A stretch of 56,004 bases of DNA from Acidobacteriota bacterium (GTDB taxonomy: Bacteria > Acidobacteriota > Vicinamibacteria > Vicinamibacterales > JAFNAJ01), in contig JAHDVP010000006.1 in the NCBI GenBank assembly GCA_023384575.1, forward strand, positions 110,011 through 166,014. The letters run 5' to 3'. The position numbers were made by a program, and so were the translations under genes. How positions within the stretch are numbered: the stretch's first letter is position 1; each line of letters opens with the position of its first letter. Under the pieces are notes generated by a model. The model saw only the letters and a list, made by a program, of their open reading frames with translations, did no database searches and was not told the DNA's origin. This document shows positions 22,590-48,592 of the stretch, piece by piece.

Positions 22590-22976
22590 ATGGTCCGGGC
22601 ACCCTCGCGCGCAGCCGTCCTCGTGGCCGACGACGAGCCGCTCACTCGCTGGGCGTTGCGACAGACCCTCGAGCGCGCCGACCTCGACGTGACGCTGGCC
22701 AGCTCGCGCCACGAGGTGTGCCACCTCCTCGAGTCGGGGCACTTCCAGGTGGCCATCGTCGCCAACGAACTCGGCCACGTGCCGATGAACGACGTGCTCG
22801 AGGCCCTCGCGAAGGCCGGGCCGCCGCAAGGCCTGGTGATTCTCTACGATGGTGACAGCCCCGAGGAGTTCGGCCAGGCGTTCCCGGCGGCGACCCTCGT
22901 CCAGAAGCCGTTCGGCCTCGAGGCGCTGACGTCGGCAATCGAGGCATGCCTCGCCGCGAAGGGCAAGGCGCGATGA
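22590..22976 (+). CDS. Receiver-like protein lacking the phospho-acceptor Asp
   Basis: A stand-alone receiver-fold protein of 128 residues. The acidic pair and following turn are kept (VLVADDEPLTRW), as is the conserved lysine (LVQKPFGLEAL). The strand that should end in the phosphorylated Asp reads VAIVANEL, so the acceptor is Ala or Asn and ordinary phosphorylation is not possible. Such pseudo-receivers usually work by protein-protein contact. It lies 68 nt after the NtrC-type regulator, and its stop overlaps the ATG of the NHL protein. It probably modulates the same regulatory circuit. Confidence 0.82.
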   Translation: MVRAPSRAAVLVADDEPLTRWALRQTLERADLDVTLASSRHEVCHLLESGHFQVAIVANELGHVPMNDVLEALAKAGPPQGLVILYDGDSPEEFGQAFPAATLVQKPFGLEALTSAIEACLAAKGKAR

Positions 22977-23953
22977 AGGCCATGGCCCGTCCGCTACGCC
23001 ATCTCGCGCAGGGCTGCGTGGAATCGCGCACCTCTCGAGCGACCGCACTCGTCGTGGCGGCGCTCGTGACGCTGGCCGTGACCGGCCCCGCGCTCGCCCA
23101 GGTGCAGCCGAAATACCTCTACACGCTGGCGAACTTCGAGGGGCGGTTGCCGTACGACTGGGCCAGGATTCACGTGGACCAGGAGCGGGACGAGACCTAC
23201 GTCATATATCAGAATCTGATCCGGATCTTCGGTCCGAGCGGCATGGAGGTGTTCAGCTTCGGCGACGATCTCGACCTCGGGCGGATCGTCGACGCCGTGG
23301 TCGACGGCCAGGGCGACATCATTCTGCTCTCCCACGTTGACGGCCGCCCCCTCGTGACCCGATGCGACTTCCGCGGCGTTCCCATCGGCCCGGTCGACAT
23401 CGTTGGCCTGCCGGCGGAAGTCCCGTTCGAGCCGAACCGGGTCGTGCATCGCAACGGCCTGCTCTACTTCGTGTCGGGCGGCCTGCGCGTCGTTGTGACA
23501 GACTCGTCCGGCGGGGTCCGCGAGCACATCGATCTGTTGCCCCTCCTCGAACTCGACGAGAAGCAGCGCAGCGACGTGGAGCTGATCGGGTTTGCCGTGG
23601 ACGCTGACGGGAACATCTGGTTCACCGTCCCGGTGCACTTCAAGGTCTACAGACTTGCTGCCGACCGCGCGTTGACATCGTTCGGCCGCGCGGGGGCCGC
23701 ACCCGGCCGGTTCGGCATCGTGGCCGGGGTCGTGACCGACAGCCGGGGCCACGTGCTCGTCGCCGACAAGCTGCGCTGCGTGATTCTCGTCTTCGACAGG
23801 GACTTGAACTTCCTCACCGAGTTCGGCTATCGCGGATCCCAGCCGGAGAACCTCATCGTCCCGGACGACCTGGCCATCGACACCCAGGACCGGGTCTACG
23901 TGACGCAAGGCCGTCGCCGTGGTGTGAGCGTCTTCGCCCTCGCGGGGGGCTGA
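22973..23953 (+). CDS. Exported NHL-repeat beta-propeller protein
   Basis: A protein of 326 residues with a signal peptide ending in GPALAQ. The body has NHL/SBBP-type propeller blades: LGRIVDAVVDGQGDIILLSH, GRFGIVAGVVTDSRGHVLVA and DDLAIDTQDRVYVTQGR. No catalytic residues are recognisable. NHL proteins are scaffolds or ligand binders and recur beside multihaem cytochromes in metal-reducing bacteria. The start overlaps the pseudo-receiver stop (ATGA). A related NHL protein ends the locus at 39246-40154. Confidence 0.8.
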   Translation: MKAMARPLRHLAQGCVESRTSRATALVVAALVTLAVTGPALAQVQPKYLYTLANFEGRLPYDWARIHVDQERDETYVIYQNLIRIFGPSGMEVFSFGDDLDLGRIVDAVVDGQGDIILLSHVDGRPLVTRCDFRGVPIGPVDIVGLPAEVPFEPNRVVHRNGLLYFVSGGLRVVVTDSSGGVREHIDLLPLLELDEKQRSDVELIGFAVDADGNIWFTVPVHFKVYRLAADRALTSFGRAGAAPGRFGIVAGVVTDSRGHVLVADKLRCVILVFDRDLNFLTEFGYRGSQPENLIVPDDLAIDTQDRVYVTQGRRRGVSVFALAGG

Positions 23954-24053: not shown

Positions 24054-24111
24054 CGAGTACAAAGTGTTGTCTTATCTGGACTTCGAGGCAGGCGCTCGGT
24101 CGTCGGCCGCT

Positions 24112-24127
24112 TGGCCTTCGTGTTGCA
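24112..24127 (+). promoter_or_regulatory. Sigma-54 promoter of the OmcS-like cytochrome
   Basis: TGGCCTTCGTGTTGCA: GG and GC are exactly 10 nt apart, and the -12 part TTGCA is perfect. It predicts a transcript starting near 24138 with a leader of about 280 nt that includes the riboswitch at 24306-24386. Confidence 0.6.
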
Positions 24128-24140
24128 GTTGGCTGAACGG

Positions 24141-24216
24141 TGCGGAGGAGTCCGCATTGCGGCATGTGCGCGAACCGGTGTGGCGGAAGGTCGCACCGGG
24201 CCCACACGAGCTTCCG
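24141..24216 (+). ncRNA. Structured 5' leader upstream of the riboswitch
   Basis: TGCGGA/TCCGCA (24141-24156) forms a hairpin near the predicted 5' end. Further on, GTGTGG (24178-24183) pairs with CCACAC (24202-24207), while the adjacent CGGAAG (24184-24189) pairs with CTTCCG (24211-24216). The two pairings are interleaved, so they are either alternatives or a pseudoknot. It matches no RNA family known to me. Confidence 0.35.
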
Positions 24217-24305
24217 GCAGACGGCTTGGGCAGCCGGACAGAAGGAGGTGAAGCGGGCACGAGTTGCCGAGTCGTCGCACGAGCCTTTCGAACGGGTTCA
24301 TCGTC

Positions 24306-24386
24306 CTCCGAAAAGGGCAACTCCATCGTGAGGTGGAGACGCAAAGCCGACGGATCCAGCGAACCTGGATGGCCGGGCTGCCGGAG
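24306..24386 (+). ncRNA. GEMM-I (cyclic di-GMP-I) riboswitch
   Basis: All hallmarks are present. P1 pairs CTCCG (24306-24310) with CGGAG (24382-24386). GGGCAA (24315-24320) opens the ligand pocket, and GGC pairs with GCC in the invariant ACGCAAAGCC (24339-24348). The P2 stem CTCCATC/GGTGGAG is capped by a GNRA tetraloop GTGA (24328-24331), and the P3 stem ATCCAG/CTGGAT is followed by the GGGCTGCC closing segment. The nucleotide before GGC is G (24315), the identity linked to cyclic di-GMP rather than cyclic AMP-GMP selectivity. It lies 34 nt before the omcS-like ATG. The 5' strand CCTCC (24305-24309) could also pair with the Shine-Dalgarno GGAGG. Confidence 0.93.
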
Positions 24387-24401
24387 AGCCACACGGGGAA
24401 T

Positions 24402-24416
24402 CATCCTTGGAGGATG
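24402..24416 (+). promoter_or_regulatory. Shine-Dalgarno and hairpin of the omcS-like gene
   Basis: GGAGG at 24409-24413 is 7 nt before the ATG at 24421. It lies in the loop and stem of a small hairpin CATCC/GGATG, so it may be masked; CCTCC at 24305-24309 is a second complement. Confidence 0.55.
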
Positions 24417-24420
24417 GGGA

Positions 24421-25659
24421 ATGAAAACACTGCGCGTAAGTGTCGCCCTCTTCGGGGCAGCACTGCTGGTGCTGGCGTACTCCGGGACGCCAGAGGCCTT
24501 CCACTCGGGCGGCGTCGCCGAATGCGGCGGCTGCCACTCGATGCACAGTCCCGCGCCCGCCGGCACCTTCCTGCTCGTCAAGAACGACGCGTCGAGCACC
24601 TGCCTCAACTGTCACGAGGGAAGCGCCGGCAGCTACCGTGTCTCGACGGCCCCGGGGAGTCTCGGCGCCGGCCAGGCACCGATCCAACGGGGGCCGGGCG
24701 GTGACTTCGGCTGGCTGAAGAAGGACTACACCTTCACCATCCGCGGCACCACGTCCACGGAGTTCGGCTACACCCACGGCCACAACATCGTCGCGGCCGA
24801 CTACGGGTATCTCGCCGACCCGGTCAAGACCACGTCGCCGGGCGGCGATTTCACGTCGGCAAACCTCAGCTGCGTGACCTGCCACGACCCGCACGGGCAG
24901 TACCGGCGTCTGTTCAGCGGGAACGTGAGCACGACCGGCGGCCCCATCAAGGGCTCCGGTTCCTTCCCCGGCGGTGAACCAGACGCCAATAACGCCGTCG
25001 GCGTGTATCATCTCCTCGCCGGCGCCGGCTACAGCCGCGCCCCGTTCCCCGGCGTGCCCGCGGCCAAGGCGCCGAGCACGTACAACCGGAGCGAGGCGTC
25101 GACGCAGACCCGCGTGGCGTACGGCCGGGCCACGACTACGGGCCACACGACGTGGGGGAACTGGTGCGGCACGTGCCACACCGACATGCACTCGAGCGGC
25201 AGCTACGTCCACCCGGTGGATCAGAACCTCAGTTCGGCGACGAGGCTCAACTACGAGCGTTACGTCAAGACCGGCGACATGACGGGATCTGCGGCGACCT
25301 CGTTCACCTCGCTCGTGCCCTTCGTGACCAACTCGGGCGACTACGCGGGGGTTCTGTCAACTCTCGCCGTCAACAACAACTCCCAGCTCGGCGGACCTGC
25401 GGGGAGCGATCAGGTGACCTGCCTCTCGTGCCACCGCTCCCACGCCTCCGGTTTTAGGAACGCGCTGCGCTGGAACGGAGACAGCGACTTCCTGACCTAC
25501 AGCGGGAACTACCCGGGCACCGACACGACCCCAACGTTGCCGCAGTACGCACTCGGCCGGACCAGCGCCGAGACGCAGGCGGCTTACTACGACCGCCCGC
25601 CGAGCACCTTCGCGAGCTACCAGCGCTCGCTCTGCAACAAGTGTCACGCGAAAGACTGA
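24421..25659 (+). CDS. omcS: OmcS-like hexahaem nanowire cytochrome
   Basis: An exported protein of 412 residues with a signal peptide cleaved before FHSGG. Six haem c motifs: CGGCH (35), CLNCH (61), CVTCH (151), CGTCH (249), CLSCH (334), CNKCH (405). It is collinear with Geobacter sulfurreducens OmcS as I recall it: FHSGGVAEC at the mature start, GGDFGW, GHNIVA, CHDPHG, APSTYNR, TQTRVAYG, SCHRSHASGF and an identical CNKCHAKD end. OmcS polymerises into filaments that carry electrons outside the cell; there His16 of the mature chain ligates a haem of the next subunit, and the equivalent His42 is present here (CHSMH). Controlled by the leader riboswitch and probably sigma-54; followed by a strong terminator. 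Confidence 0.93.
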   Translation: MKTLRVSVALFGAALLVLAYSGTPEAFHSGGVAECGGCHSMHSPAPAGTFLLVKNDASSTCLNCHEGSAGSYRVSTAPGSLGAGQAPIQRGPGGDFGWLKKDYTFTIRGTTSTEFGYTHGHNIVAADYGYLADPVKTTSPGGDFTSANLSCVTCHDPHGQYRRLFSGNVSTTGGPIKGSGSFPGGEPDANNAVGVYHLLAGAGYSRAPFPGVPAAKAPSTYNRSEASTQTRVAYGRATTTGHTTWGNWCGTCHTDMHSSGSYVHPVDQNLSSATRLNYERYVKTGDMTGSAATSFTSLVPFVTNSGDYAGVLSTLAVNNNSQLGGPAGSDQVTCLSCHRSHASGFRNALRWNGDSDFLTYSGNYPGTDTTPTLPQYALGRTSAETQAAYYDRPPSTFASYQRSLCNKCHAKD

Positions 25660-25800: not shown

Positions 25801-27210
25801 ATGGAGCGTCGACTTTCCCTCCTGCTGGTTGTCCTCCTGCTCGGCGCGCCCAACGCGGCCGACAGCGGGCGGGTCTCCGGCGCGCAGCCGGCAGGTGAGG
25901 GAGAGGTCTACATCTACTTGCAGCCGCTGCCCTTCGAGGCAGAGGCCGTGACGTTCTCCATCGGCACGATGTCGGCGGCAGACGGCCAGGGCGCCGAGCG
26001 TCGCCTCGAGGTGGCGTTGACGACCGTCGCGCACCCCGAGGCGCGACGGCAGCGACTGCTCGGATCGGGCCGCCTGCCTGAGGGGCAGTACACGGGGTTG
26101 ACGATCGCGGTGAGAAACGCCTCGTTGCGGCGCGACGGCGCCGAGGCCGCCCTGCTCGTGCCCGACGAGCCAGTACGAGTGGACGTGCCCTTTCTCGTGA
26201 TCCGGGGGCGGGCCGTCGTGCTGTGGCTCGAGTTTCGCTCTGCCGACTCGCTCGCCCCGGGCACCGTGGACTTCACGCCGGTCTTCACCGCCTATCAAGC
26301 GCCGCGACCGATGCTGAGCCTGGCCGGGTTCGTGTCCAGCTCGACATCGAACGCCGTCACCGTGTTCGACAAGAAGCGTCGGCAGGTGGCGGCCGTCGTG
26401 CCGACGGGGAGCCGCCCCGCCGGGATGGCGCTCGATCAGCGCGCGGGCCGGCTGTACGTGGCGTGTCCCGACGAGGACGAGATCCTGGCAATCGACGTGG
26501 CCTCGACGGAAATCGTCGAGCGGACGCGCCTCTTCCCCGGCGACGGGCCGCGCGAGATCGCGCTCACCCCCGACGGCCGGACGCTCGTGTCGGTCAACCC
26601 CGGGTCGAACAGCGTCAGCGTCTTCGACGCGTCGCCGCTCACCCGGCTCGACCGGGTCGGCGTCGACGATGGTCCGGGCGCGCTGGCCATCGACCCGGCC
26701 GGTCAACGCGCGTTCGTGTTCAACGCCCTCTCGGGTTCGGTGTCGGTCGTCGACCTCGCGCAACGCAGGGTCGTCACGACCATCTCGATGGACTCCGCGC
26801 CGCTCAGGGGGCAGTTCAGCGCGCGTGGCGACCGGCTCTTCGTGATCCACGAGCGGTCTCCCTATCTCACCGTCGTCGATCCGGCGGGCCTGACCGTCGT
26901 CAGGCGCGAACGGCTGCGCACGAGTGGGAGCGCCATCAAGGTCGACACCAGGCGGGGCTGGATTTCCATCGGCAGTCCCGGCAGCACGACGGTCGAGTTC
27001 TACGAACCCAGCACGCTGCTGCCCCTCGATGCGATGACGGTCGAGGGAGGGGTGGCCCACATGACCATCGATGCCGAGGACAACAGCATGTTCCTCGTGA
27101 GCCCGGCGACGGGGCGCCTGCTTGTCGCCAGCGTCGCCGACAGGAGGGTGGCCACCGCGATCGACGTGGGCAAGGGGCCCTCCTGGGTGGTGGTCATGGG
27201 AGAGAAGTAG
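25801..27210 (+). CDS. Exported YVTN-type beta-propeller protein
   Basis: A protein of 469 residues with a signal peptide. Residues about 35-165 are an Ig-like region (EGEVYIYLQPLPFEAEAVTF, ending in PGTVDFTPVFTAY), and residues about 180-469 are a seven-bladed YVTN propeller (VAAVVPTGSRPAGMALDQRA, IALTPDGRTLVSVNPGSNS, VSVVDLAQRRVVTTI). No haem motif or catalytic residue is seen. It is first in a nine-gene operon; the next gene starts immediately after its stop. A surface scaffold or filament-anchoring role is possible (inference). Confidence 0.8.
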   Translation: MERRLSLLLVVLLLGAPNAADSGRVSGAQPAGEGEVYIYLQPLPFEAEAVTFSIGTMSAADGQGAERRLEVALTTVAHPEARRQRLLGSGRLPEGQYTGLTIAVRNASLRRDGAEAALLVPDEPVRVDVPFLVIRGRAVVLWLEFRSADSLAPGTVDFTPVFTAYQAPRPMLSLAGFVSSSTSNAVTVFDKKRRQVAAVVPTGSRPAGMALDQRAGRLYVACPDEDEILAIDVASTEIVERTRLFPGDGPREIALTPDGRTLVSVNPGSNSVSVFDASPLTRLDRVGVDDGPGALAIDPAGQRAFVFNALSGSVSVVDLAQRRVVTTISMDSAPLRGQFSARGDRLFVIHERSPYLTVVDPAGLTVVRRERLRTSGSAIKVDTRRGWISIGSPGSTTVEFYEPSTLLPLDAMTVEGGVAHMTIDAEDNSMFLVSPATGRLLVASVADRRVATAIDVGKGPSWVVVMGEK

Positions 27211-29415
27211 GTGGGACGAGGCGCGACGGCGCGCCGCGTGGTGCTGACCGGGGTGTTGACCCTGGCTCCCGCGGGCGTGTCGGCGCAACAGGGCCTCGCC
27301 GAGGGCTTCAGGGCGGTCCTGGACACCAACGTCAGCGTCATCACGACCACGGTCACCACCGACGCCAGCACGGTCACGACGACGACGCGCACCCTGTTTC
27401 CGCGGCTCACGGTGGACACGCACGCTCTGGTGCTGCCCGCGTTGAGGCTGAATGCGGGGGGCACGTTCGAGGTCAACCGGTCGTTCATCGACAACGACCT
27501 CCTCTTCGCCGGGGCTGGCGGCGGCACGACGTCGTCGATTACGCAGCTGCGCCCGTTCTTCGAACTGCGGTCGACCAATCGCGTGCTCTCTCCTGGATTC
27601 GGGTACTACCGGCGGGAGATTCGCACCAGCGTTGGCCGCCTGCCGAGCCTGAAGCTCGTGAGCGAGGACGTCGCCGGCTACCTGGGGTGGAAGCCGGAGG
27701 GGCTGCCGGAGTCCGACGTCCAGTTCGTGCGCACGACGACGTTCGACGGTGGGCGGGTGTTCCAGGACACCACGAAGGACTTCGGGTCGATCATCTCGCG
27801 CTACGCCTACAAGAACCTGAACCTCTACTACCGTGGGGCGTATCTCGACACGACCGAGCGGGTGAACCAGCTCGACACGCGCCAGTGGTCGAACGCGGCC
27901 AGGACCGACTACGCGGGGGACTTCCTGAAAGATCGGCTCCGCTGGAACGTGACCTACAACGTGAGCCGCCAGGACCTGACGACCGTCGCTCGCGGCGAGG
28001 GGGGCGAGGTTCCGCTGCCCGTGAACGCGTTCGCCGGGCTGTCGGCCCTCAGCGACACGCCCGTCACGACGACGCTCAGTCCGAACCCTCCGCTCATCGA
28101 CGGCAACCTGACGGCGAGCGCCGGCCTCAACCTCGGCGTGACCGGTGCGGGCGCCGACGCGCAGGCCAGGAACATGGGCCTCGACTTCCTGAGCCCGACC
28201 GAAGTCAACCGGATCCTCGTCTGGGTCGACCGCGAGCTCCCGGCCAGCATCGCCGCCACGTTCTCGTGGGAGGTCTACACCAGCGTCGACAACCTGGTGT
28301 GGACGCGGGAGACGCTGGTCTCGACGGCGCCCTTCGGGCCGTTCGAGAGCCGTTTCCAGGTCGATTTTCCGTCCGTCACCGCGCGCTACCTCAAGCTGGT
28401 GACCCGACCGCTCTCGGGCGCCGTGCTCGACGCGTCCCGGTACCCGGAGATCTTCGTCACGGAGTTGCAGGCGTTCCTCACGCGGTCGCCGGGCGAGGTG
28501 CCGACCGAGTTGACCCGGACGAATCAGATCTTCAGCACGGACGTCCGGCTGCGGCTGCTCGAGAAGCCGTCGCTCTACTACGAGGGAAACTACTGGTACA
28601 ACGGGTTCGACGCGCCGGTGCCCGACCGGGACACCCTGTCGAACGGCTTGTCGGTGAACCACCGGTTCAATCGCGTGATGGCGGCCTACGCGCGGGGCGC
28701 GTACGAACAGGGCCGGGAGCTCGAGGGGCGCCGGACCGCCACGGTGACGAACGCAACGCTGACGCTCGACCCGATTCCCACGCTGACGAGCTCGGTGCTC
28801 TTCTCGGGCGTGGACGAGACGATTGGCGACCGGCTGAACGACCGGAAGGGTTTCCTGGTCCAGACCGCGGCACAGGTGTACCGCGGCGTCGACGTGCAGT
28901 TCGGCTTCGGCTGGAATTTCACGACGAGGGAGGGCGACGAGCACCTGCGCGATCGGCTCCTCAACCTCAATGCCAGCATCGTCCCGCGGCAGAACCTGAC
29001 GCTGACGCTGAACTACATCGACACGACGACGACGCGGTCGGGCACGTTCACCGGCGACCCGCGCTACCACGCCCGCCGGGGGTTCCTCACGCTCGCCTTC
29101 GACCCGATTCGGACGCTCCACCTCGTCGTGTCGGAGGAAATCGTGGCCATCACCGGCGAGAAGACCCGGACCACGCACAACGTCGGCGCCAACTGGACGC
29201 CGTTCCCCGACGGCGCGTTGCAGCTGACCGTGGCGTACAACGAGAACGTGCGGCCGCTCGCGTACGGCACCGACCGGGTGTTCAGACCAGGCGTGCGCTG
29301 GACCTTCTCGCGGCAGTCGTACGTCGACGTCTCGTACCAGGTGCTGGAGACCGAGTTCGTGGGACTGAAGACCGAGTCGAAGATCTTCGGCGTGGACCTG
29401 AAAGTGTTCTTCTGA
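27211..29415 (+). CDS. Large outer-membrane beta-barrel with discoidin-like domain
   Basis: A protein of 734 residues with an export signal (cleavage near VSAQQ). Long runs of alternating strands and a terminal aromatic residue (GVDLKVFF) indicate an outer-membrane barrel of porin type. An F5/8C-like domain is inserted at about residues 300-425: NMGLDFLSPTEVNRILVWVD, SWEVYTSVDNLVWTRE and ARYLKLVTRP are typical of that fold. The GTG start directly abuts the upstream stop, so translation is coupled. In porin-cytochrome conduits a barrel sheathes a multihaem cytochrome; this is a candidate for that part or for the filament exit channel (inference). Confidence 0.82.
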   Translation: MGRGATARRVVLTGVLTLAPAGVSAQQGLAEGFRAVLDTNVSVITTTVTTDASTVTTTTRTLFPRLTVDTHALVLPALRLNAGGTFEVNRSFIDNDLLFAGAGGGTTSSITQLRPFFELRSTNRVLSPGFGYYRREIRTSVGRLPSLKLVSEDVAGYLGWKPEGLPESDVQFVRTTTFDGGRVFQDTTKDFGSIISRYAYKNLNLYYRGAYLDTTERVNQLDTRQWSNAARTDYAGDFLKDRLRWNVTYNVSRQDLTTVARGEGGEVPLPVNAFAGLSALSDTPVTTTLSPNPPLIDGNLTASAGLNLGVTGAGADAQARNMGLDFLSPTEVNRILVWVDRELPASIAATFSWEVYTSVDNLVWTRETLVSTAPFGPFESRFQVDFPSVTARYLKLVTRPLSGAVLDASRYPEIFVTELQAFLTRSPGEVPTELTRTNQIFSTDVRLRLLEKPSLYYEGNYWYNGFDAPVPDRDTLSNGLSVNHRFNRVMAAYARGAYEQGRELEGRRTATVTNATLTLDPIPTLTSSVLFSGVDETIGDRLNDRKGFLVQTAAQVYRGVDVQFGFGWNFTTREGDEHLRDRLLNLNASIVPRQNLTLTLNYIDTTTTRSGTFTGDPRYHARRGFLTLAFDPIRTLHLVVSEEIVAITGEKTRTTHNVGANWTPFPDGALQLTVAYNENVRPLAYGTDRVFRPGVRWTFSRQSYVDVSYQVLETEFVGLKTESKIFGVDLKVFF

Positions 29416-29433: not shown

Positions 29434-30021
29434 ATGAAGACAGCGCCCTGGCCCGTCACCTTCGCCACGTTCCTCCTGGCGCTCACGGCCTGTCCCGTCT
29501 CGGCACAGGTGACCGACGTCTTCCGGGACCCGCGAATGGACTTCGGCATCATCAAGACGGTGGCCGTGATGCCGTTTGCGAACCTGACGCGGGACCAGGT
29601 CGTCGCCGAGCGGGTGCGTGACGTCTTCATCAACAAGCTCCTGTCGAGTGAGGCCGTGTACGTGCTGCCGGTCGGCGAGGTGGCGCGCGGCATCACGCGG
29701 GTCGAGATCCAGAGTCCCACCGAGCCGACGGCGGAGGAGGTCGTCAAGCTCGGCGCCTTCCTCGGCGCCGAAGCCGTCATCACGGGCGTCGTCCGGGAAT
29801 ACGGCGAGGTCCGGTCGGGGGCGACCTCGGCCAACGTCATCTCGATGAGCATCCAGTTGGTCGAGGCGCAGACGGGCCGGATCGTCTGGAGCGGGTCGTC
29901 GACCAAGGGGGGCATCACGTTCATGAACCGCCTGTTCGGCGGCGGGGGGCAGCCGCTGAACGTGGTGACCGAGCAGGCCATCGACGCCCTCTTCGACAAG
30001 CTGCTCGGCCCGCCCGAGTAG
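29434..30021 (+). CDS. CsgG/TolB-N-like exported protein, possible lipoprotein
   Basis: A protein of 195 residues. The signal sequence contains LTAC, which fits a lipobox (lipid anchor at that Cys), although cleavage after VSAQ is an alternative. The mature part begins with the CsgG/LpoB-type core: IIKTVAVMPFANLTRDQVVAER, then VGEVARGITRV, KLGAFLGAEAVITGVVREYG, and VEAQTGRIVWSGSSTKGG. CsgG proteins form outer-membrane secretion pores for curli; related short lipoproteins act in envelope assembly. The gene lies 18 nt after the barrel gene. A role in exporting or docking the nanowire cytochrome is inferred from position. Confidence 0.8.
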   Translation: MKTAPWPVTFATFLLALTACPVSAQVTDVFRDPRMDFGIIKTVAVMPFANLTRDQVVAERVRDVFINKLLSSEAVYVLPVGEVARGITRVEIQSPTEPTAEEVVKLGAFLGAEAVITGVVREYGEVRSGATSANVISMSIQLVEAQTGRIVWSGSSTKGGITFMNRLFGGGGQPLNVVTEQAIDALFDKLLGPPE

Positions 30022-30030
30022 GAGCGCCAG

Positions 30031-33000
30031 ATGGGTGCGATGACGCCCCCGGTCTTCTTCGGCCTGATCTACCTGCTGTTCTTCCTGTCGGGCGCGGCCG
30101 CGCTCGTCTACCAGGTGGTGTGGGTCCGGTCGCTGACGCTGATCTTCGGCGGCTCGCACCTCGCCGTGACCGCGGTCCTGTCCATCTTCATGGCCGGCCT
30201 GGCGATTGGCGGGTACGTGCTCGGGCGTCGCGTCGATCGAGTCGAGAAGCCGCTTCGCCTTTACGGCTACCTCGAGTTCGGGATCGCGGCGGGCGCTCTG
30301 GCCTTCGCCGCGCTGATGACGGTCTATCCGTCCCTTTACGTGGCGCTCGCGCGCGGGCGAGACGAGGCGACGTTCTATCTCTCGGCCGTGCGCATGCTGT
30401 TCGCCGTTGTCGCGCTGATCGTGCCGACGATCCTGATGGGCGGCACGCTGCCGGTCGTCTCGCGCTTCGTCTCACGCCAGCCGGAGCAGCTGCGCAGTCA
30501 CCTCTCGTTCCTCTACGGGTTCAACACCCTCGGCGCGGTGCTCGGTGCACTGCTCGCCGGGTTCGTCTTCCTCCGGGTCTACTCGGTCAGCACGACGCTC
30601 TACATCGCCGTCGTCACCAACGTGATCATCGGGGTCCTCAGCCTCGTGCTGCAGGAGAAGGCGGCCGCGATCTCCGCCCCGGGCCTTGCCGACGCAGAGC
30701 CCGCCGCGGCCCGGGCAGGATCGCCACCCCGTGGAGACGAGGGGCGGGAAGCGCCGCGCCGGCGCTCGCTCGAGCTGGTGCTCTGGGGCATCGGGATCAG
30801 CGGCTTCTGCGCGCTGGGCTACGAGGTGCTCTGGACGCGGGTCCTCACGATCGCCATCGGCGCCAGCGTCTACGGCTTCACGATCATCCTCGTCGCCTTC
30901 CTGACCGGCATCGCGCTCGGCAGCGCCTCGTACGGTGCGTTCGTCAAGGTGTTCAGAATCGGGCTCCCGTCGACGCGCACGCTCGTGCTCTGGTTCGGGC
31001 TCACGCAGGTGGTCATCGGCGCGACCGCCCTGCTCGTCACGGTGTACCTCCGCGACATCCCGGCCAACTCCATCAGGGTGCTGAACTACTTCGTCGAAAC
31101 GGGACTGGCATCGTTCGGCGCGCGCGCCTGGGCCCACTTCGCGCTCGCCTTCCTGTACATGGTCGTCCCGGCGTTCTTCATGGGCGTGGCGTTCCCGATC
31201 GCGGGCGAGGCCCTCGCACGGCATCGAAGGGCGGTGGGCCGGGCCGTCGGAGAGGTGCTCGCGTACAACACCGTCGGTGCCATTCTGGGCGCCGGCGTCA
31301 GCGGCCTCGTGCTGATGCACCTCGTCGGCATCGAGCGGTCGCTGCAGGTCCTGACCGTGGTCAACATCGGCCTGGGGCTGGCGGTGGTGGCCAGCCTGCT
31401 GCGGCCGACATGGGCGCCGGCCGCCGTCGGGGCCGCCAGTCTCGCCGTCGTCGCCTTCCTGGCGCTCGCCCCCGACGTCGCGCGTGTCTGGGATCGGAAC
31501 TACTTCGCCATCTTCCGGAGCAACCAGCCCGAGGCCTTTCGCACGCCGGAGATGGTGCGCGAGGCCGTCGAGAACACCGACGTCCTGTACTACGCCGAGG
31601 GGGTCGAGTCGATCGTGAGCGTGATCCGGGTCAAGGGCGGCGAGAAGGCCTTCCTGACGAACGGACGCGTCGAGGCGTCGTCGCACCTGCAGGCCCAGCA
31701 GGTGCAGTACACGCTCGGTCACCTCCCGATGCTCCTGCACCCCGGGCCGAAGGACGTCCTCGTGGTCGGGATGGGCAGCGGGATGACGGCTGGCGCGACC
31801 GCGGTGCACCCGAGCGTCGAGCGCGTCACCATCGTGGAGATCGAGAAGGCGGTGTTCGGCGTGGCGCGGGCGTTCGAGGAGTTCAACCACGGGGTGCTCG
31901 ATCACCCGAAGGTCCGCGTCGTCGTGAACGACGGGCGGAACTTCCTGCTGACCACCGACAGGACGTTCGACGTCATCACGGCAGACCCGATCCACCCGTG
32001 GTTTCGCGGCGCCGGGTACCTCTACTCGAGCGAGTACTTCAGGCTGGCGGCGACGCGCCTGCGTCCCGGCGGCGTCATCGCGCAGTGGCTGCCCATCTAC
32101 GAGCTGACGCCGAAAGACCTCGAGTCGGTCGTCAGGACCTTCCGGGAGCACTTCGCCTACACGCTGATGTGGCTCACCCACTACGACGCGGAGATCGTCG
32201 GCAGCAACTCGCCCTTCGTCATCGACGAGGCGGAACTCGACCGGCGAATCGCCGAGCCGGACGTCGCCAGCAGCCTGCGACGCGTGATGATGGGCTCGGC
32301 CACCGACCTCCTGAGCTATTTCGTCATGGGCACCGAGGGCATGAAGCGCTTCGGGTGGAACGGCATCCTGAACACCGACGACTACCTCTATCTCGAGTTC
32401 TCGGCGCCGTTCTCGATTGCGACCTCGGCCGTGATGGCTGCCAACGTCGAGGCGATCGCCGCCCAGCGCGAGAGCCTCCTGCCCTACCTGAGACCCGCAC
32501 CGGACGAGGCGGCGCGCGAGGCGCAGCGCGATCGGTGGAACCGCCAGCTCGCGGCCGGCCGGCTGAACGACCCGGCGCTCGCCCTGTTCCTCGGCGGCCG
32601 AAGGGGCGACCCGCGGTTCACGCAGCTGCTCGGTCGGCTCGATGTCGAGCACCCCTCGTTCGCTCCCGCGAGGTTCCTGAGCAACGAGTACCAGCTCGCG
32701 GTTGCCCTCGAGCCCAGACTCCTCCAGCAGGCCACCTTCACGTTCGTGAACGAGAACGGCATCACGACGGCCGTCGAACTGTCGGCCGTCCTCGTGCCGG
32801 TGAGCCGCACCCGGGCCTCGGTGATGTTCGTCGACAACCAGGCGCGGGTGGTGCACGGGCAGGTGTACCTCGACGACTACGACCGCGACGACCTGGCCAG
32901 CCGCTTCGCCAGCGACGTCATGGGGGCCGTCCACGTCGCGTACCAGAAGGACGCGATCGCCGCGTTCGAGGGCGGGCAGGCCCTGCCGCCTGCTGACCAG

Positions 33001-33063
33001 ACCTTGCGAAGGATCCGGGCCGTCATCGCGTCGAAGACACAGGGCGTACAGCAGGCCTCGTAG
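30031..33063 (+). CDS. Membrane-bound spermidine synthase-like protein
   Basis: A protein of 1010 residues. Two groups of transmembrane helices (about 5-215 and 245-490) precede a cytoplasmic spermidine-synthase-like Rossmann domain (about 530-780) with DVLVVGMGSGMTAG for the nucleoside site and VVNDGRNFLLTTDRTFDVI after it. A C-terminal region of about 200 residues has no assignment. The fused transporter/spermidine-synthase family is widespread in environmental bacteria, and its reaction is mostly unproven. GGAG precedes the ATG at 30031; a second ATG lies three codons later. Its place inside a cytochrome operon is unexpected. Confidence 0.85.
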   Translation: MGAMTPPVFFGLIYLLFFLSGAAALVYQVVWVRSLTLIFGGSHLAVTAVLSIFMAGLAIGGYVLGRRVDRVEKPLRLYGYLEFGIAAGALAFAALMTVYPSLYVALARGRDEATFYLSAVRMLFAVVALIVPTILMGGTLPVVSRFVSRQPEQLRSHLSFLYGFNTLGAVLGALLAGFVFLRVYSVSTTLYIAVVTNVIIGVLSLVLQEKAAAISAPGLADAEPAAARAGSPPRGDEGREAPRRRSLELVLWGIGISGFCALGYEVLWTRVLTIAIGASVYGFTIILVAFLTGIALGSASYGAFVKVFRIGLPSTRTLVLWFGLTQVVIGATALLVTVYLRDIPANSIRVLNYFVETGLASFGARAWAHFALAFLYMVVPAFFMGVAFPIAGEALARHRRAVGRAVGEVLAYNTVGAILGAGVSGLVLMHLVGIERSLQVLTVVNIGLGLAVVASLLRPTWAPAAVGAASLAVVAFLALAPDVARVWDRNYFAIFRSNQPEAFRTPEMVREAVENTDVLYYAEGVESIVSVIRVKGGEKAFLTNGRVEASSHLQAQQVQYTLGHLPMLLHPGPKDVLVVGMGSGMTAGATAVHPSVERVTIVEIEKAVFGVARAFEEFNHGVLDHPKVRVVVNDGRNFLLTTDRTFDVITADPIHPWFRGAGYLYSSEYFRLAATRLRPGGVIAQWLPIYELTPKDLESVVRTFREHFAYTLMWLTHYDAEIVGSNSPFVIDEAELDRRIAEPDVASSLRRVMMGSATDLLSYFVMGTEGMKRFGWNGILNTDDYLYLEFSAPFSIATSAVMAANVEAIAAQRESLLPYLRPAPDEAAREAQRDRWNRQLAAGRLNDPALALFLGGRRGDPRFTQLLGRLDVEHPSFAPARFLSNEYQLAVALEPRLLQQATFTFVNENGITTAVELSAVLVPVSRTRASVMFVDNQARVVHGQVYLDDYDRDDLASRFASDVMGAVHVAYQKDAIAAFEGGQALPPADQTLRRIRAVIASKTQGVQQAS

Positions 33064-34230: not shown

Positions 34231-35889
34231 ATGACACCACGTCTCCTCGTCGCGACCGCGCTCTGTCTCGTCTCGATTCCCGCGCAGGTCCTGCTGGATG
34301 CCCAGAAACCGGTGCTTCCCGAGCGTGAAGGCCGGCCGGTCGTCGCCATCGTCAACGACGACTGGATCTCGCTCGACGAGCTCGTCGCCGAGCTGTCCCC
34401 GTCGGTCGACACGAAACGCCTGCTCGAAGGCCGCGCCACGGTGCCAGAATTCGAGACGCTCGAGCGCCTGATCACCGTGAGGCTCATCGTCCAGGAGGCC
34501 GCCACGATGGGCCTCGCCGATCTGCCGGAAATCCGGAAGCAGGTCGACGTGGCGTCGCGCCAGATCCTGCGCGACGTGCTGATGGAGCGGGCCGTCAAGG
34601 GTGTCACGCCCGACGAGGCGGCCATCGAAGCGCTGGCCAGGGACATGGTCAGGGAGTGGAAGACGTCTTCGCTGCTGTTCGCCGAGGAGGAGCCGGCCCG
34701 GAGGCTGCGGGACGAGGTCGCCAGGGGGGCGGCCTACGAGGAGGTCGCCGCGCGGGCAGTGGCGGACGGGAAGGCGAGGGCCGAGGGCGACCCGGGCTAC
34801 CACCGGCGCAAGGACTATCTGCCGCCGATTGCCGAGGCCGTCGCCAAACTCGACGTGGGGCAGGTCAGTCCGGTCATTCGCCTCGAGGCCGGGTTCGTCG
34901 TGGTGAAGGTGCTCGATATCCGTTACCCCGACGTCGCGGCGGCGCGGCCCGAGGCGCGGAAGACGGTCGTGACCCGCCAGCAGGCCGCGGCCTTCAAGGC
35001 CTACGAAGACGCCCTGCGGGCCCAGTACGTCGTCGTTCACGAGGACCTGCTCGAGAGCCTCGACTACGAGGCCGAGAAGCCCGGCTTCGCGGCCCTGCTC
35101 GAGGACCGACGGGTCATCGCCGAGATCAAGGGGGCGAGTCCCGTCACCGTCGGCGACCTGACCGACTACCTGCGCCTGCAGTTCTTCCACGGCGCCGACC
35201 GGCCGGGCCAGGGCGCGCGGCTGAACTCCCGCAAGCGTCTCGCGTTCGACGCGACGCTCGGGCGCCGGCTGCTGAACCGCGAAGCGCTCCGGCTCGGCCT
35301 CGACCGGACGCACGCGTACGTGGACCGGGTCAACGCCTTCGAAGACGGGCTGGTGTTCGATGCCTTCGTGCAGCGGGTGATCGCCCCCACGAGCAAGCTG
35401 AGGGAAGAAGAGATCAAGGCCCACTACGACGCGTTCGTCGGTGAGTACGCCTTTCCCCGCATGCTGAAGGTCCGCAGCCTGGCGTTCACCAGCCGGGCGG
35501 CGGCCGAGGACGCGACGGAGAAGCTGCGCGCGGGAACGGACTTCGGCTGGCTGGCGACCACCGCGCGGGGGCAGGTCGACAGGGCGGCGCCTGGACTGCT
35601 CTCGTTCGACGGGCGGCTGATCACGATCGGCAGCGTGCCGGAAGGCGTGCGGAAGACGCTCGGAGAGGCTCAGGCCGGTGAGGTCCGGTTGTACGCGAGT
35701 CCGGAAGGGCACTTCTATGCTCTTGCGGTGCAAGAGGTCGTCGAGCCGACCCCACGGCCGTACGACGAAGTGAAAGGGACCATCGCACAGAAGCTGTACG
35801 GCGAGAGGGTCCAGAAGGGCGTCGAGGAACACGCCGGCAAGCTGCGCGCCCTGTCCAAGGTCGAGGTCTACCTGAAGAAGGTGCGGTGA
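34231..35889 (+). CDS. Exported parvulin-type peptidyl-prolyl isomerase, SurA/PrsA-like
   Basis: A periplasmic chaperone of 552 residues with a signal peptide. The N-terminal SurA_N-like segment is VVAIVNDDWISLDELVAEL and EFETLERLITVRLIVQEA. Two parvulin-like regions follow: about 145-240 (YEEVAARAVADGKARAEGD, LPPIAEAVAKLDVGQVSPVI) and about 405-515 (RMLKVRSLAFTSRAAAEDA, APGLLSFDGRLITIGSVPEG). Such isomerases fold outer-membrane proteins and secreted substrates, and are regularly encoded beside extracellular cytochromes of metal reducers. It ends 44 nt before the 26-haem cytochrome gene. Probable client: the barrel or the cytochromes of this operon. Confidence 0.88.
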   Translation: MTPRLLVATALCLVSIPAQVLLDAQKPVLPEREGRPVVAIVNDDWISLDELVAELSPSVDTKRLLEGRATVPEFETLERLITVRLIVQEAATMGLADLPEIRKQVDVASRQILRDVLMERAVKGVTPDEAAIEALARDMVREWKTSSLLFAEEEPARRLRDEVARGAAYEEVAARAVADGKARAEGDPGYHRRKDYLPPIAEAVAKLDVGQVSPVIRLEAGFVVVKVLDIRYPDVAAARPEARKTVVTRQQAAAFKAYEDALRAQYVVVHEDLLESLDYEAEKPGFAALLEDRRVIAEIKGASPVTVGDLTDYLRLQFFHGADRPGQGARLNSRKRLAFDATLGRRLLNREALRLGLDRTHAYVDRVNAFEDGLVFDAFVQRVIAPTSKLREEEIKAHYDAFVGEYAFPRMLKVRSLAFTSRAAAEDATEKLRAGTDFGWLATTARGQVDRAAPGLLSFDGRLITIGSVPEGVRKTLGEAQAGEVRLYASPEGHFYALAVQEVVEPTPRPYDEVKGTIAQKLYGERVQKGVEEHAGKLRALSKVEVYLKKVR

Positions 35890-35933
35890 CGCGTCGGGTC
35901 GACCCGGCCCGGTTCGCGTCGGAGGATGGACCG

Positions 35934-37952
35934 ATGTCGTCGCGCAGGCCTGCCATCAGGGCGCTGGCGTGGATCACGGTGATCCTGGTCATCGTGAGCT
36001 TCGAGCTGTCACAAGGCCAGGAGCGCCGGAGGCGCACGCTCGGGGGGGGAGCGCCCAGCGCGAAGCAGGGGCTCGGGAGCCAGGATTGCCTCGCGTGCCA
36101 CAAGGCGTTCGCGGACAAGTACCTCGGCATGAAGACGGTCCATCCCACGGTGAAGCAGGGCCAGTGCGACCAGTGCCACCTGCGCCACGGCCTGGTCACG
36201 AAGCTGGTGCTGAAGAGGGAGGGGAACGAGCTCTGCTACACCTGCCACGCCAGGGACACGATCGGCCTCGACAAGTCTCACGTGCACACGGCGGTCCGGA
36301 GCGGGAGCTGCACGAGCTGCCACAACCCGCACGCCTCCCAGGCGAACCATCTCCTGAAGGCGGAAGGCGGCGAGGCCTGCTACCAGTGCCACCAGCGCGC
36401 CGACTACGAGAAGCCCGTCGTGCACGAGGTGCTGCGGACGGCGGGGTGCTCGACGTGCCATGCCTCGCACGGGGCCGACCAGCCTGGCCTGCTCGTGGCC
36501 GAGGAGAAGGCCCTCTGTCTCGGGTGCCACGCCAGCGACACGGCGGCGTTCAAGACGGCGCACGGCAGCTATCCGATCGAGACGGCATCGTGCGTGGGCT
36601 GTCACACCCCGCACAGCTCGACCGAGGCCAAGCTGCTGAAGGGCAGCGTGCACGCGCCGGTCGCGGGGGGGCAGTGCGACACCTGCCACGCCGCGCCGAC
36701 CTCGGAGCAGCCCTTCGAGGTGACGCAGCCGACAGGCGAGCTGTGCGGCACGTGCCACGACGCCGCCGGCATGGCGGGCACGGGCAAGGTGCAGCACCTG
36801 CCGTTCAAGGAAGGCGAGTGTCTCACCTGTCACAATCCTCACGCCTCCGAGCATCCGACGCTGCTCAATAGCCGGGGCAACGTGCTCTGCGTGACGTGCC
36901 ATCAGGATAGGGGCGAGCCCGTTCCGTTCGCGCACCAGCCCGTTGCCGACGAGAGGGGCTGCCTCTCCTGCCACGGCGCCCATTCGGCCGAGCACGCCGG
37001 GTTGTTGACGGCCGGCACCGACACCCTCTGCGCGACCTGTCACGCTGCCACGCAGGAGGCGGCGCAGAAGGCGACGGTGCCGCACGCGCCGGCCGCCATG
37101 ACCGATTGCACGGCCTGCCACGACGCGCACGGATCGAACGTCAAAGGCATCCTCAAGGCCAGGGCGGATCGTGTCTGTTACGAGTGCCACACCGACGTGC
37201 AGTCGCGCTTCGTCAAGACGTACACGCACCAGCCGGTGCGCGACGGCGCGTGCGCGTCGTGCCACGAGGCCCACGGCTCCGAGCAGGCCAAGCTGCTCAA
37301 GGCCACCGACTCCGCGCTCTGCGAGTCGTGTCACGCCGCGATGATGAAGCCCCTCGACGGCGGGGCCAGGCACGGGCCCTTCGACGCCGGCATGTGCCTG
37401 AGCTGCCACGATGCCCACGCGAGCAATACCCAGGGCATGACCACGGAGCCCTCCGGCACGTTGTGCGCCGGGTGCCACGCCGACGTCAAGGACGCGCTCG
37501 ACACGTCGAGGGCGAAGCACCACCCGGCGGCGAGCGGCGAGTGCACGAAGTGCCACAACCCGCACCAGACCCCCCTCGAGCGCCTGCTGCTCGCGAGGAG
37601 CCCCGATCTCTGCCTGGGCTGCCACCAGGACATCAAGGCGAGCCTGGACAAGCCCCACGTGCACTCGCCGGCCGCCAGCGACTGCCTCGGCTGCCATGCG
37701 CCGCACGCGTCCGCGGAGCTGCGGCTGATGCTGCAGCCCGTGCGCGCCGTGTGCGCCGACTGCCACGACGTGCAGACGCCGGCCTTCAGCACCGCGCACC
37801 TCGAGATCGATCCCGCCCGCATCCGGTGCGAACGCTGCCACGACGCGCACGGATCGGACGATGCGAAGCTGTTCAAGGAGAACGCCCACGCGCCCTTCGC
37901 CCTGAAGTCCTGCCTCGATTGCCACATCGCGCCACAGGGCGCGCCGAGGTGA
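35934..37952 (+). CDS. 26-haem c-type cytochrome
   Basis: An exported protein of 672 residues. I count 26 CxxCH motifs, from CLACH soon after the signal segment to CLDCH near the C-terminus, spaced in repeating doublets of about 45 residues of the doubled-CxxCH type (for example CTSCHNPHASQANHLLKAEG then CYQCH). Many motifs are followed by NPHAS, DAHGS or APHAS, which supply second haem ligands. The signal anchor is ALAWITVILVIVSFELSQG, perhaps uncleaved. ATG at 35934 follows GGAGGATGG. Such rods bridge periplasm and cell surface; here it probably feeds electrons towards the OmcS-like filament (inference). Confidence 0.93.
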   Translation: MSSRRPAIRALAWITVILVIVSFELSQGQERRRRTLGGGAPSAKQGLGSQDCLACHKAFADKYLGMKTVHPTVKQGQCDQCHLRHGLVTKLVLKREGNELCYTCHARDTIGLDKSHVHTAVRSGSCTSCHNPHASQANHLLKAEGGEACYQCHQRADYEKPVVHEVLRTAGCSTCHASHGADQPGLLVAEEKALCLGCHASDTAAFKTAHGSYPIETASCVGCHTPHSSTEAKLLKGSVHAPVAGGQCDTCHAAPTSEQPFEVTQPTGELCGTCHDAAGMAGTGKVQHLPFKEGECLTCHNPHASEHPTLLNSRGNVLCVTCHQDRGEPVPFAHQPVADERGCLSCHGAHSAEHAGLLTAGTDTLCATCHAATQEAAQKATVPHAPAAMTDCTACHDAHGSNVKGILKARADRVCYECHTDVQSRFVKTYTHQPVRDGACASCHEAHGSEQAKLLKATDSALCESCHAAMMKPLDGGARHGPFDAGMCLSCHDAHASNTQGMTTEPSGTLCAGCHADVKDALDTSRAKHHPAASGECTKCHNPHQTPLERLLLARSPDLCLGCHQDIKASLDKPHVHSPAASDCLGCHAPHASAELRLMLQPVRAVCADCHDVQTPAFSTAHLEIDPARIRCERCHDAHGSDDAKLFKENAHAPFALKSCLDCHIAPQGAPR

Positions 37953-37963
37953 GGGAGAACGTC

Positions 37964-39241
37964 ATGCACGCGCGCACGAAGGTGTCGTTGCTCGTCGCCC
38001 TCGCCGTTGCCATCGGCGGGCACTCGCTGGCTCGCAGCCAGCAGGATCAGAACCCGTACCGGCTGAAGGAGCCCAACCAGCAGAAGCTCTGCCTCGACTG
38101 CCACGCCGACTTCGAACAGACGCTGCAGAAGCGCTTCGTGCACACCGCCGTCAAGGACGGGCAGTGCTCGAGCTGCCACAATCCGCACGTCGCGTCGCAT
38201 GGCAAGCTGCTGTCGGCCGAGGCCGGGCAGATGTGCGAGTCGTGTCACGGCAGCGTCGTGCCCGGCAACGCCATGAGCGCCCACAAGATCGTGGCCGATG
38301 GGCAGTGCTCGACGTGCCACGATCCCCATGCCTCGGACAATCCCGGCATCCTGCTCGCGAGGGGCAACGACCTCTGTCTGGGCTGTCATGCCGATCTGGG
38401 GAAAGCGGTCGCGGAGGCCAGGTTCAAGCACCATCCCGTCGAACAGGGCTGCACGACCTGTCACAGTCCGCACGCGTCGGAGCAATCCGTCGGTCTGTTG
38501 AAGAGCGCCGTGCCGGCGCTCTGTGTGAGCTGCCACAAGCCCGATACCGCGACCTTCGCGGCGCGGCACATGAAGTACCCCGTCGCCTCCGCGTCGTGCA
38601 CGTCGTGCCACGATCCCCACGGGTCGAGCCAGTCGGCGCTCATGCTCGACAACGTCCACGCTCCGGTTGCGACCCGCATGTGCGCCCAGTGCCACGAGCC
38701 GCCGGGGTCGCCGACGCCGTTTGCGACCAGGCGTGTCGGCTACGAGCTCTGCCAGGGGTGTCACGACGACATGGTGCGCACGACGCTGGCGCAGCCGCGC
38801 CTGCACTGGCCGGTGGTGGGCGCGGACGGCTGCGCGAGCTGCCACAATCCGCACGCGTCGAAGCAGGCCAATCTCCTCAAGACCGACACCGTGGCGCTCT
38901 GCCGCGAGTGCCATGCGGACACGTCGCGACGGATCGAGGGCACGGCCGTGAAGCACGCGCCGGTCGCCGACGGCATGTGCAGCGCCTGTCACTCGCCGCA
39001 CGGCGCAAGCGGCGTGTACCTGATGGACCAGCCCAACATCCAGCTCTGCGGGACGTGCCACGACTATCAGCTCCACTCGTCGCACCCGATTGGCGAGACG
39101 GCCATCGACCCGAGAAACGCTAACCTGCACGTCGACTGTCTGAGCTGCCACAACGGGCACGGCACCGACGCCAAGTACATGCTGCTCGCGCCGACCAACG
39201 TGGAGCTGTGCACCCCGTGCCACTCGAAGATCTCGAGGTGA
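37964..39241 (+). CDS. 16-haem c-type cytochrome
   Basis: An exported protein of 425 residues with a signal peptide (SLLVALAVAIGGHSLARS). I count 16 CxxCH motifs from CLDCH to CTPCH, again in doublets (CSSCHNPHVASHGKLLSAEA then CESCH). Sequence style is the same as the preceding 26-haem protein, so the two are probably products of duplication. It starts 11 nt after that gene, and the next NHL gene is 4 nt downstream. Likely periplasmic or membrane-associated electron carrier of the same route. Confidence 0.93.
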   Translation: MHARTKVSLLVALAVAIGGHSLARSQQDQNPYRLKEPNQQKLCLDCHADFEQTLQKRFVHTAVKDGQCSSCHNPHVASHGKLLSAEAGQMCESCHGSVVPGNAMSAHKIVADGQCSTCHDPHASDNPGILLARGNDLCLGCHADLGKAVAEARFKHHPVEQGCTTCHSPHASEQSVGLLKSAVPALCVSCHKPDTATFAARHMKYPVASASCTSCHDPHGSSQSALMLDNVHAPVATRMCAQCHEPPGSPTPFATRRVGYELCQGCHDDMVRTTLAQPRLHWPVVGADGCASCHNPHASKQANLLKTDTVALCRECHADTSRRIEGTAVKHAPVADGMCSACHSPHGASGVYLMDQPNIQLCGTCHDYQLHSSHPIGETAIDPRNANLHVDCLSCHNGHGTDAKYMLLAPTNVELCTPCHSKISR

Positions 39242-39245
39242 GTCG

Positions 39246-40154
39246 ATGAAGACGGTGCCGCTCGCCGCGCTGGTCGCGACCGCTCTCGTCCTCGGATACC
39301 CACAGGCGACCGCCGCGCAGGGCGCCAAGCTCAGATACCTGGCCGCGGTGTACGCCGACGACAAGGGCGTCGGCCTGCACCTGCCCGAAGGGGTCGCGTG
39401 CGACGACAAGGGCCAGGTCGTCGTCGCCGACACGGGAAACGACCGCCTGCTTCGTTTCGGGTTCCACGACCGGACGCTCACCGGCGGCGCCGAGATCAGG
39501 ATCGCGCAGCTTCAGTCGCCCACCAGGGTCCGGCTGAACTCGAAGGGTGAGATCTACGCCCTCGACGGCAAGGCGCGGCGCGTCGTCCACTTGAGTGCCG
39601 CAGGCGAGTTCAAGAGGGTGCTCTCGTTCGACGGGGCGCCGCCTCCTTCGACGATCGTGCCGAAGAGTGTCGACATCGGTCCCGCGGACGCGATCTACGT
39701 GCTCGACGTCTTCTCGGCGCGCGTCCTCGTCCTCGACGCCGAGGGGCGGTTCGAGCGGGCGCTCACCGCACCGGCCGAAGCGGGCTTCATCACCGATCTC
39801 GCGGTCGATGCCGTGGGCAACGTGCTGTTGCTCGACTCGATTCGCCGGCGGATCCACGTCGCGGCGGCAGATGCGACGTCGTTCTCCCCGCTCGGCGGCG
39901 ACTTCAAGGACTCGCTGGTCACACTGCCCGTCTCCCTCGCGACCCGGGCGGGCCTCATCCTGGTGGCCGAGGGCAGCGGCGGCGCCATCGCCACCATCGG
40001 GCAGGACGGCTCGTTCCTGGCCAGGCAGCTGACGAAGGGCTGGAGGGAGGGAGCGCTCAACCATCCCTCCCAGATGTGCATCAGCGGCCACGACGAGGCG
40101 TTCGTCGCCGACCGCGACAACAGCCGGGTGCAGGTCTTCTCGCTGAGCCGCTGA
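39246..40154 (+). CDS. Exported NHL-repeat protein
   Basis: A protein of 302 residues with a signal peptide (cleavage after ATAAQ). Five to six NHL blades: LPEGVACDDKGQVVVADTGN, LQSPTRVRLNSKGEIYALDG, PKSVDIGPADAIYVLDVFSA, ITDLAVDAVGNVLLLDSIRR, and NHPSQMCISGHDEAFVADRD. It closes the operon. No haem or catalytic motif is visible. Similar in plan to the NHL protein encoded at 22973; such propellers may organise the surface cytochromes, but there is no direct evidence. Confidence 0.85.
   Translation: MKTVPLAALVATALVLGYPQATAAQGAKLRYLAAVYADDKGVGLHLPEGVACDDKGQVVVADTGNDRLLRFGFHDRTLTGGAEIRIAQLQSPTRVRLNSKGEIYALDGKARRVVHLSAAGEFKRVLSFDGAPPPSTIVPKSVDIGPADAIYVLDVFSARVLVLDAEGRFERALTAPAEAGFITDLAVDAVGNVLLLDSIRRRIHVAAADATSFSPLGGDFKDSLVTLPVSLATRAGLILVAEGSGGAIATIGQDGSFLARQLTKGWREGALNHPSQMCISGHDEAFVADRDNSRVQVFSLSR

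Positions 40155-45824: not shown

Positions 45825-48592
<2,768 letters not shown>

What the first reader, a model, noticed from the sequence alone, without database searches (positions are those of the whole stretch)
35934..39241. Tandem 26-haem and 16-haem cytochromes
Direct counting gives 26 and 16 CxxCH motifs in adjacent genes with the same doublet pattern and His-rich followers. Forty-two haems from two genes, plus six in the filament subunit, indicate a large conductive route.
Basis: seen in the sequence. Interest (0 to 1): 0.72.

Follow-up and report, generated by a model that had tools for sequence, protein, structure and literature searches.

The report
26- and 16-haem OmcS-companion cytochromes
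An acidobacterium carries a known kind of gene cluster for building protein "wires" that move electrons out of the cell, and its two giant haem proteins (26 and 16 haems) look like two halves of one 42-haem wire, because several relatives have joined them into a single gene.

Summary
Gene c26 (35934-37952, +, 672 aa) has 26 CxxCH motifs and c16 (37964-39241, +, 425 aa) has 16; both are intact, 11 bp apart. They lie in an Acidobacteriota (Vicinamibacterales-like) genome inside a cluster with an OmcS-like hexahaem cytochrome, a YncE propeller, a probable outer-membrane barrel, two LpoB-like proteins, a PpiC isomerase and an NHL propeller. This matches the Geobacter omcS-companion (osc) cluster, where GSU2495 (OscI, 26 haems) and GSU2494 (OscJ) hold the same places. 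A four-gene core (26-haem, 16-haem, isomerase, propeller) was published in 2017, so the pair is known in kind; its function is untested. What I add: the numbers 26 and 16 hold in 55 distinct loci of at least three phyla; 14 further sequences fuse the two genes into one 42-haem ORF, with haems 26 and 27 spaced like ordinary neighbours, at three places on a quick tree; one ligand histidine is conserved per haem in c26. Best reading: c26 and c16 form one fixed-length, MtrA-like 42-haem conduit serving the OmcS filament. Placement across the envelope is inferred; AlphaFold models failed (pLDDT 42 and 39).

The parts
35934..37952 (+). c26: secreted 26-haem c-type cytochrome (OscI position), Sec signal without lipobox
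   Evidence: 26 CxxCH; Paired_CXXCH E=2e-143; DmsE/MtrA decahaem model 304 bits; 59-63% identical orthologues with exactly 26 motifs
37964..39241 (+). c16: secreted 16-haem c-type cytochrome (OscJ position), in register with haems 1-16 of c26
   Evidence: 16 CxxCH; Paired_CXXCH E=7e-91; highest-scoring register is offset 0 in 7 of 8 loci
24421..25659 (+). OmcS-like hexahaem cytochrome, the likely filament subunit (ORF from 24064; a start at 24421 gives a signal peptide and a mature N-terminus at the same Phe as OmcS)
   Evidence: 6 CxxCH; PDB 6ef8 OmcS E=2e-93, query residues 146-531 to chain 1-407; sequence
25801..27210 (+). YncE-like beta-propeller (OscD-like position; ORF from 25690)
   Evidence: Pfam YNCE E=4e-16; sequence
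27211..29415 (+). 734-aa probable outer-membrane beta-barrel with an embedded galactose-binding-like domain (OscE-like position)
   Evidence: Signal peptide and C-terminal beta-signal ending in Phe; 24 of 26 homologues end in F, L, I or Y, unlike neighbour families; weak F5_F8 domain; one homologue hits Porin_4 weakly
29434..30021 (+). LpoB/GNA1162-like protein (OscF-like position)
   Evidence: Pfam LpoB E=7e-11
30031..33063 (+). MFS-type membrane protein with spermidine-synthase domain; accessory, absent from several homologous clusters
   Evidence: Pfam Spermine_synth E=1e-24; no match in L029 and L039
33090..34190 (+). second LpoB-like protein (OscG-like position)
   Evidence: Pfam LpoB E=1.5e-7
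34231..35889 (+). PpiC-type peptidyl-prolyl isomerase (OscH-like position)
   Evidence: Pfam Rotamase_2 E=4e-27
39246..40154 (+). NHL-repeat beta-propeller, last gene of the conserved block
   Evidence: Pfam NHL E=1.5e-15; follows c16 in relatives
22946..23953 (+). beta-propeller-like protein upstream of the omcS-like gene, found near many homologous clusters
   Evidence: Weak SGL match; recurs in homologous clusters

Best explanation
c26 and c16 are the OscI and OscJ homologues of an omcS-companion cluster in an acidobacterium. They are secreted, bis-histidine multihaem cytochromes built by repeating the paired-haem unit seen in MtrA and NrfB. Together they make one continuous 42-haem electron conduit of fixed length, which carries electrons between periplasmic donors and the base of the OmcS filament, probably with the barrel-like protein at 27211-29415. 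Shown: haem counts, intact genes, conserved ligands and register, cluster identity, natural fusions. Inferred: that the two proteins dock end to end, that the chain is extended, its place in the envelope and its partners.
For: Exactly 26 plus 16 motifs in 55 distinct loci (56 rows, one region listed twice), and single ORFs of 42 motifs in 14 loci, 12 of them uncut. Haem-to-haem spacing is nearly invariant (23/25 alternation, a 28-residue step at haem 8-9 in both proteins); in fusions haem 26 to 27 is 23-28 residues, like any other step. Fusion L117 has lost the stop and the signal peptide but keeps the mature start of c16. The fused state needs three changes on the tree. In c26, 25 non-motif His are invariant in 9 sequences and His334 makes the 26th in most, giving 9 ligands for haems 1-9 and 17 for haems 10-26. 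The MtrA chain of PDB 6r2q is the best solved relative, E=1.5e-28; it carries 10 haems over 80 A (PMC7198977). Cluster context.
Against: No usable structure: mean pLDDT 42 and 39. A G. sulfurreducens GSU2494 mutant is listed with wild-type phenotype (PMC9248073). Homologues were reported as not expressed during metal respiration (PMC5539420), although PMC9248073 lists GSU2494 as upregulated on Fe(III) oxides. The host also has three MtrB-family porin genes, each beside a decahaem gene, that could serve as the conduit instead. Some Acidobacteriota with fused genes show no OmcS-like gene within about 8 kb (L104, L176, L178).
Confidence: 0.58

Rival explanations
1. Porin-cytochrome sandwich (OetABI-type model): one of the two cytochromes sits in the periplasm and the other outside as a surface lipoprotein, with the barrel protein between them.
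For: OetABI is described as a periplasmic cytochrome, a porin and an extracellular lipoprotein cytochrome, found beside omcS-like genes (PMC10553843). A lipobox precedes c26 in 16 of 29 sequences of the L038 phylum and in L043. The cluster has a barrel-like protein.
Against: Neither window protein has a lipobox. Fusions with no added linker put both halves on one chain, which needs the chain to thread the barrel. The paper text read here does not give haem numbers for OetA and OetB.
Confidence: 0.2
2. Electron store: the 42 haems act as a periplasmic capacitor or redox buffer, not a directed wire.
For: Very high haem density with little other protein (about 26 residues per haem, from the lengths); no lipobox in the window proteins.
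Against: Haem number and register are fixed in nearly all complete loci, whereas a store should tolerate changes in number; linkage to the filament assembly genes.
Confidence: 0.1
3. Assembly factor: the pair helps oxidise, fold or export OmcS and other cytochromes rather than carrying respiratory electrons.
For: The neighbours are an isomerase, propellers and channel-like proteins that two papers, citing Shen 2025, link to OmcS folding, secretion and morphology.
Against: A folding role does not explain 42 conserved haems in one register.
Confidence: 0.1

Closest known systems
omcS-companion (osc) cluster of Geobacter sulfurreducens: OscI (GSU2495) and OscJ (GSU2494)
   Same: 26-haem protein beside a second large cytochrome; omcS-like gene, propeller, channel-like proteins and isomerase in the same block (PMC12977616, PMC13194489, PMC2996986)
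   Different: Acidobacteriota host; MFS-spermidine-synthase gene inserted; only one omcS-like gene in the genome. Geobacter sequences were not compared directly, and the primary paper (Shen 2025) was not held.
26/16-haem core operon of SEEP-SRB1 and other Deltaproteobacteria (Skennerton et al. 2017, PMC5539420)
   Same: Adjacent 26-haem and 16-haem genes with a peptidyl-prolyl isomerase and a six-bladed propeller
   Different: Described there in Deltaproteobacteria and Thermodesulfobacterales; the words Acidobacteria, fused and fusion do not occur in its text.
MtrA (DmsE-family decahaem cytochrome) of MtrCAB
   Same: Paired bis-His repeat; best PDB relative; c26 scores 304 bits on the DmsE model
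   Different: 10 haems, sheathed by MtrB; no MtrB-family gene in the window, the host's own MtrB genes lie on other contigs.

Membership tests
osc / omcS-companion cluster | OmcS-like hexahaem gene at the head of the block | tested here: met
   24064-25659, 6 CxxCH, PDB 6ef8 E=2e-93
osc / omcS-companion cluster | beta-propeller, channel-like proteins and prolyl isomerase between the omcS-like gene and the large cytochromes | tested here: met
   YncE propeller, 734-aa barrel-like protein, two LpoB-like proteins, PpiC; that these equal OscD-H is read from order and domain type
osc / omcS-companion cluster | 26-haem OscI followed by OscJ | tested here: met
   Counts 26 and 16; Geobacter 26-haem count from PMC2996986
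osc / omcS-companion cluster | direct sequence orthology to GSU2493-GSU2501 | not tested
   No named Geobacter locus was returned by the genome scan
osc / omcS-companion cluster | needed for OmcS filament formation | not testable with these tools
   Needs genetics
26/16-haem core operon (PMC5539420) | 26-haem, 16-haem, isomerase and propeller genes together | tested here: met
   Order PpiC, c26, c16, NHL at 34231-40154; conserved in relatives
OetABI porin-cytochrome conduit | outer-membrane barrel in the cluster | tested here: inconclusive
   C-terminal beta-signal and a weak Porin_4 hit in one homologue, no solved relative
OetABI porin-cytochrome conduit | one cytochrome is a surface lipoprotein | tested here: not met
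   No lipobox in either window cytochrome
MtrA / DmsE decahaem family | ten haems with an MtrB-family porin partner | tested here: not met
   26 and 16 haems; PF11854 hits only on other contigs

The most novel reading that the evidence does not exclude
The 26- and 16-haem proteins form a single 42-haem wire whose haem number is fixed by the distance it must span (about 360 A if it extends like MtrA), reaching from the periplasm across the outer membrane to the OmcS filament; several lineages have fused it into one 42-haem protein.
Probability: 0.35. Interest if true: 0.75.

Novelty: new member of a known kind. Interest (0 to 1): 0.45.

Why it matters
How electrons pass between cytochrome filaments and the cell interior is described as not well understood (PMC10553843). 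A strictly conserved 26+16 haem count and natural 42-haem fusions give a concrete hypothesis and ready-made single-chain proteins for structure work, and show that the cluster reaches well into Acidobacteriota and Myxococcota.

Tried and rejected
AlphaFold2 on c26 and c16 with 9 and 8 sequences gave mean pLDDT 42 and 39, so no fold search was run. Frameshift or motif loss: rejected. A chance motif run: rejected. An MtrB-type porin in the window: none; the three PF11854 hits lie on other contigs. A solved relative of the 734-aa protein: none. The primary osc paper (PMC11845295) is not held. A literature search for 42-haem cytochromes returned 41 papers, of which the 12 listed were irrelevant.

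Full report
Observation. c26 runs from 35934 to 37952 and c16 from 37964 to 39241 on the + strand. They hold 26 and 16 CxxCH motifs, with no other haem motif type in c26 and no frameshift. Shuffled sequences of the same composition hold 0.34 and 0.21 motifs on average, at most 3. The two genes are 11 bp apart, and c16 ends 4 bp before the next gene, so co-transcription is likely (inference from spacing).

Surroundings. Upstream on the same strand lie an OmcS-like hexahaem cytochrome (PDB 6ef8, E=2e-93), a YncE-like propeller, a 734-aa protein, an LpoB-like protein, an MFS protein with a spermidine-synthase domain, a second LpoB-like protein and a PpiC isomerase; downstream lies an NHL propeller. 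The 734-aa family ends in F, L, I or Y in 24 of 26 homologues, as outer-membrane barrels do, while neighbour families do not; this is suggestive only, with no solved relative. A histidine kinase and a sigma-54 activator lie further upstream.

Host. Named relatives in the genome collection are Vicinamibacterales and Acidobacteria MAGs, and five genomes of the same order carry full-length c26 at 59-63% identity. The host has one OmcS-like gene, three MtrB-family porin genes, each beside a decahaem gene, and NapC-type cytochromes, so it has other parts of an extracellular electron transfer system.

Relatives. In same-order genomes with complete genes the counts are again exactly 26 and 16, in the same gene order. 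Searches of 396 Acidobacteriota genomes, 195 genomes of the phylum of Anaeromyxobacter oryzae and 247 genomes of the phylum of a Deltaproteobacteria MAG (L038; the tool does not name the phylum) found matches at E<=1e-60 in 29, 26 and 47 genomes. These include shorter and partial matches, so they are not counts of the full pair. Among fetched loci, 56 rows (55 distinct loci, as L038 and L135 are the same region) show 26 then 16, and 12 show one uncut ORF of 42. Departures exist: a 43, a 27+16, a 26+11, a frame-broken 7+19, a few other counts and a separate 28-haem group. The Pseudomonadota locus L043 has 25 CxxCH and one CX4CH next to a 16. The loci were chosen by similarity to c26, so the invariance is within this family.

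Fusion. In all 14 fused sequences with 42 motifs (12 uncut, 2 running off a locus end), haem 26 to haem 27 is 23-28 residues, the same range as ordinary steps. The join resembles the haem 9-10 step inside c26 and c16. In L117 the c26 stop and the c16 signal peptide are gone while the mature start of c16 remains. On a quick tree the fused state needs three changes; some could be splits rather than fusions, but L117 is nested among split genes with strong support. The fused genes keep cluster neighbours in several genomes (L096, L098 with L175, L167, L165).

Architecture. Most haems come in pairs, the second being CxxCHxxH. In c26, haems 9 and 26 stand unpaired, and the conserved non-motif histidines number 9 for haems 1-9 and 17 for haems 10-26, as expected if every haem is bis-histidine. 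c16 aligns best in register with haems 1-16 of c26 in 7 of 8 loci. A 9+17+9+7 module grammar for the 42 haems is my reading of these patterns.

Mechanism. The MtrA chain is the closest solved relative; its 10 haems span 80 A (PMC7198977). At that step, 26 haems would span about 220 A and 42 about 360 A (arithmetic; an extended shape is assumed). I therefore favour one conduit of fixed length that serves the filament. AlphaFold models were unusable, so continuity rests on sequence register and fusions. Against it stand a GSU2494 mutant listed with wild-type phenotype and reports that homologues are not expressed in metal respiration. The main rival is the OetABI-type arrangement with one cytochrome on each side of the outer membrane; the linker-free fusions make it less likely unless the chain threads the barrel.

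Known and new. A core of 26-haem, 16-haem, isomerase and propeller genes was described in 2017 (PMC5539420). The Geobacter genes are named oscI and oscJ in PMC13194489, and the eight-gene block is linked to OmcS maturation and secretion in PMC12977616, citing Shen 2025, which I could not read. The window is therefore a new member of a known kind. The count invariance across phyla and the 42-haem fusions were not seen in the papers I could search; that is not proof that they are unreported.

Noticed in passing
L068, L070, L076, L117, L123, L124 and others: Single ORFs with exactly 42 CxxCH that join the 26- and 16-haem genes, at three places on the tree.
   Followed up: yes
window 30031-33063: An MFS protein with a spermidine-synthase domain sits inside the cluster in some Acidobacteriota, after the NHL gene in L038, and is missing in L029 and L039.
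   Followed up: partly
host genome G000 contigs C29, C33, C49: Three MtrB-family porin genes elsewhere in the host genome, each beside a decahaem MtrA-like gene.
   Followed up: partly
L125-L128: A related 28-haem single-gene group in the Anaeromyxobacter phylum.
   Followed up: no
L039 and L133: Anaeromyxobacter oryzae carries two separate 26+16 pairs.
   Followed up: no
L104, L176, L178: A lineage with fused 42-haem genes beside a PpiC isomerase but no OmcS-like gene found within about 8 kb.
   Followed up: partly
L075 / L103: A 21-haem ORF at the c26 position in a 74% complete single-contig genome, possibly a sequencing frameshift.
   Followed up: no
window 45825-48592: Fur-family regulator next to a peroxidase-family gene, apparently unrelated to the cluster.
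   Followed up: no
window 18604-19449: C_GCAxxG_C_C redox-type protein with two CxxCH motifs upstream of the kinase and sigma-54 activator.
   Followed up: no
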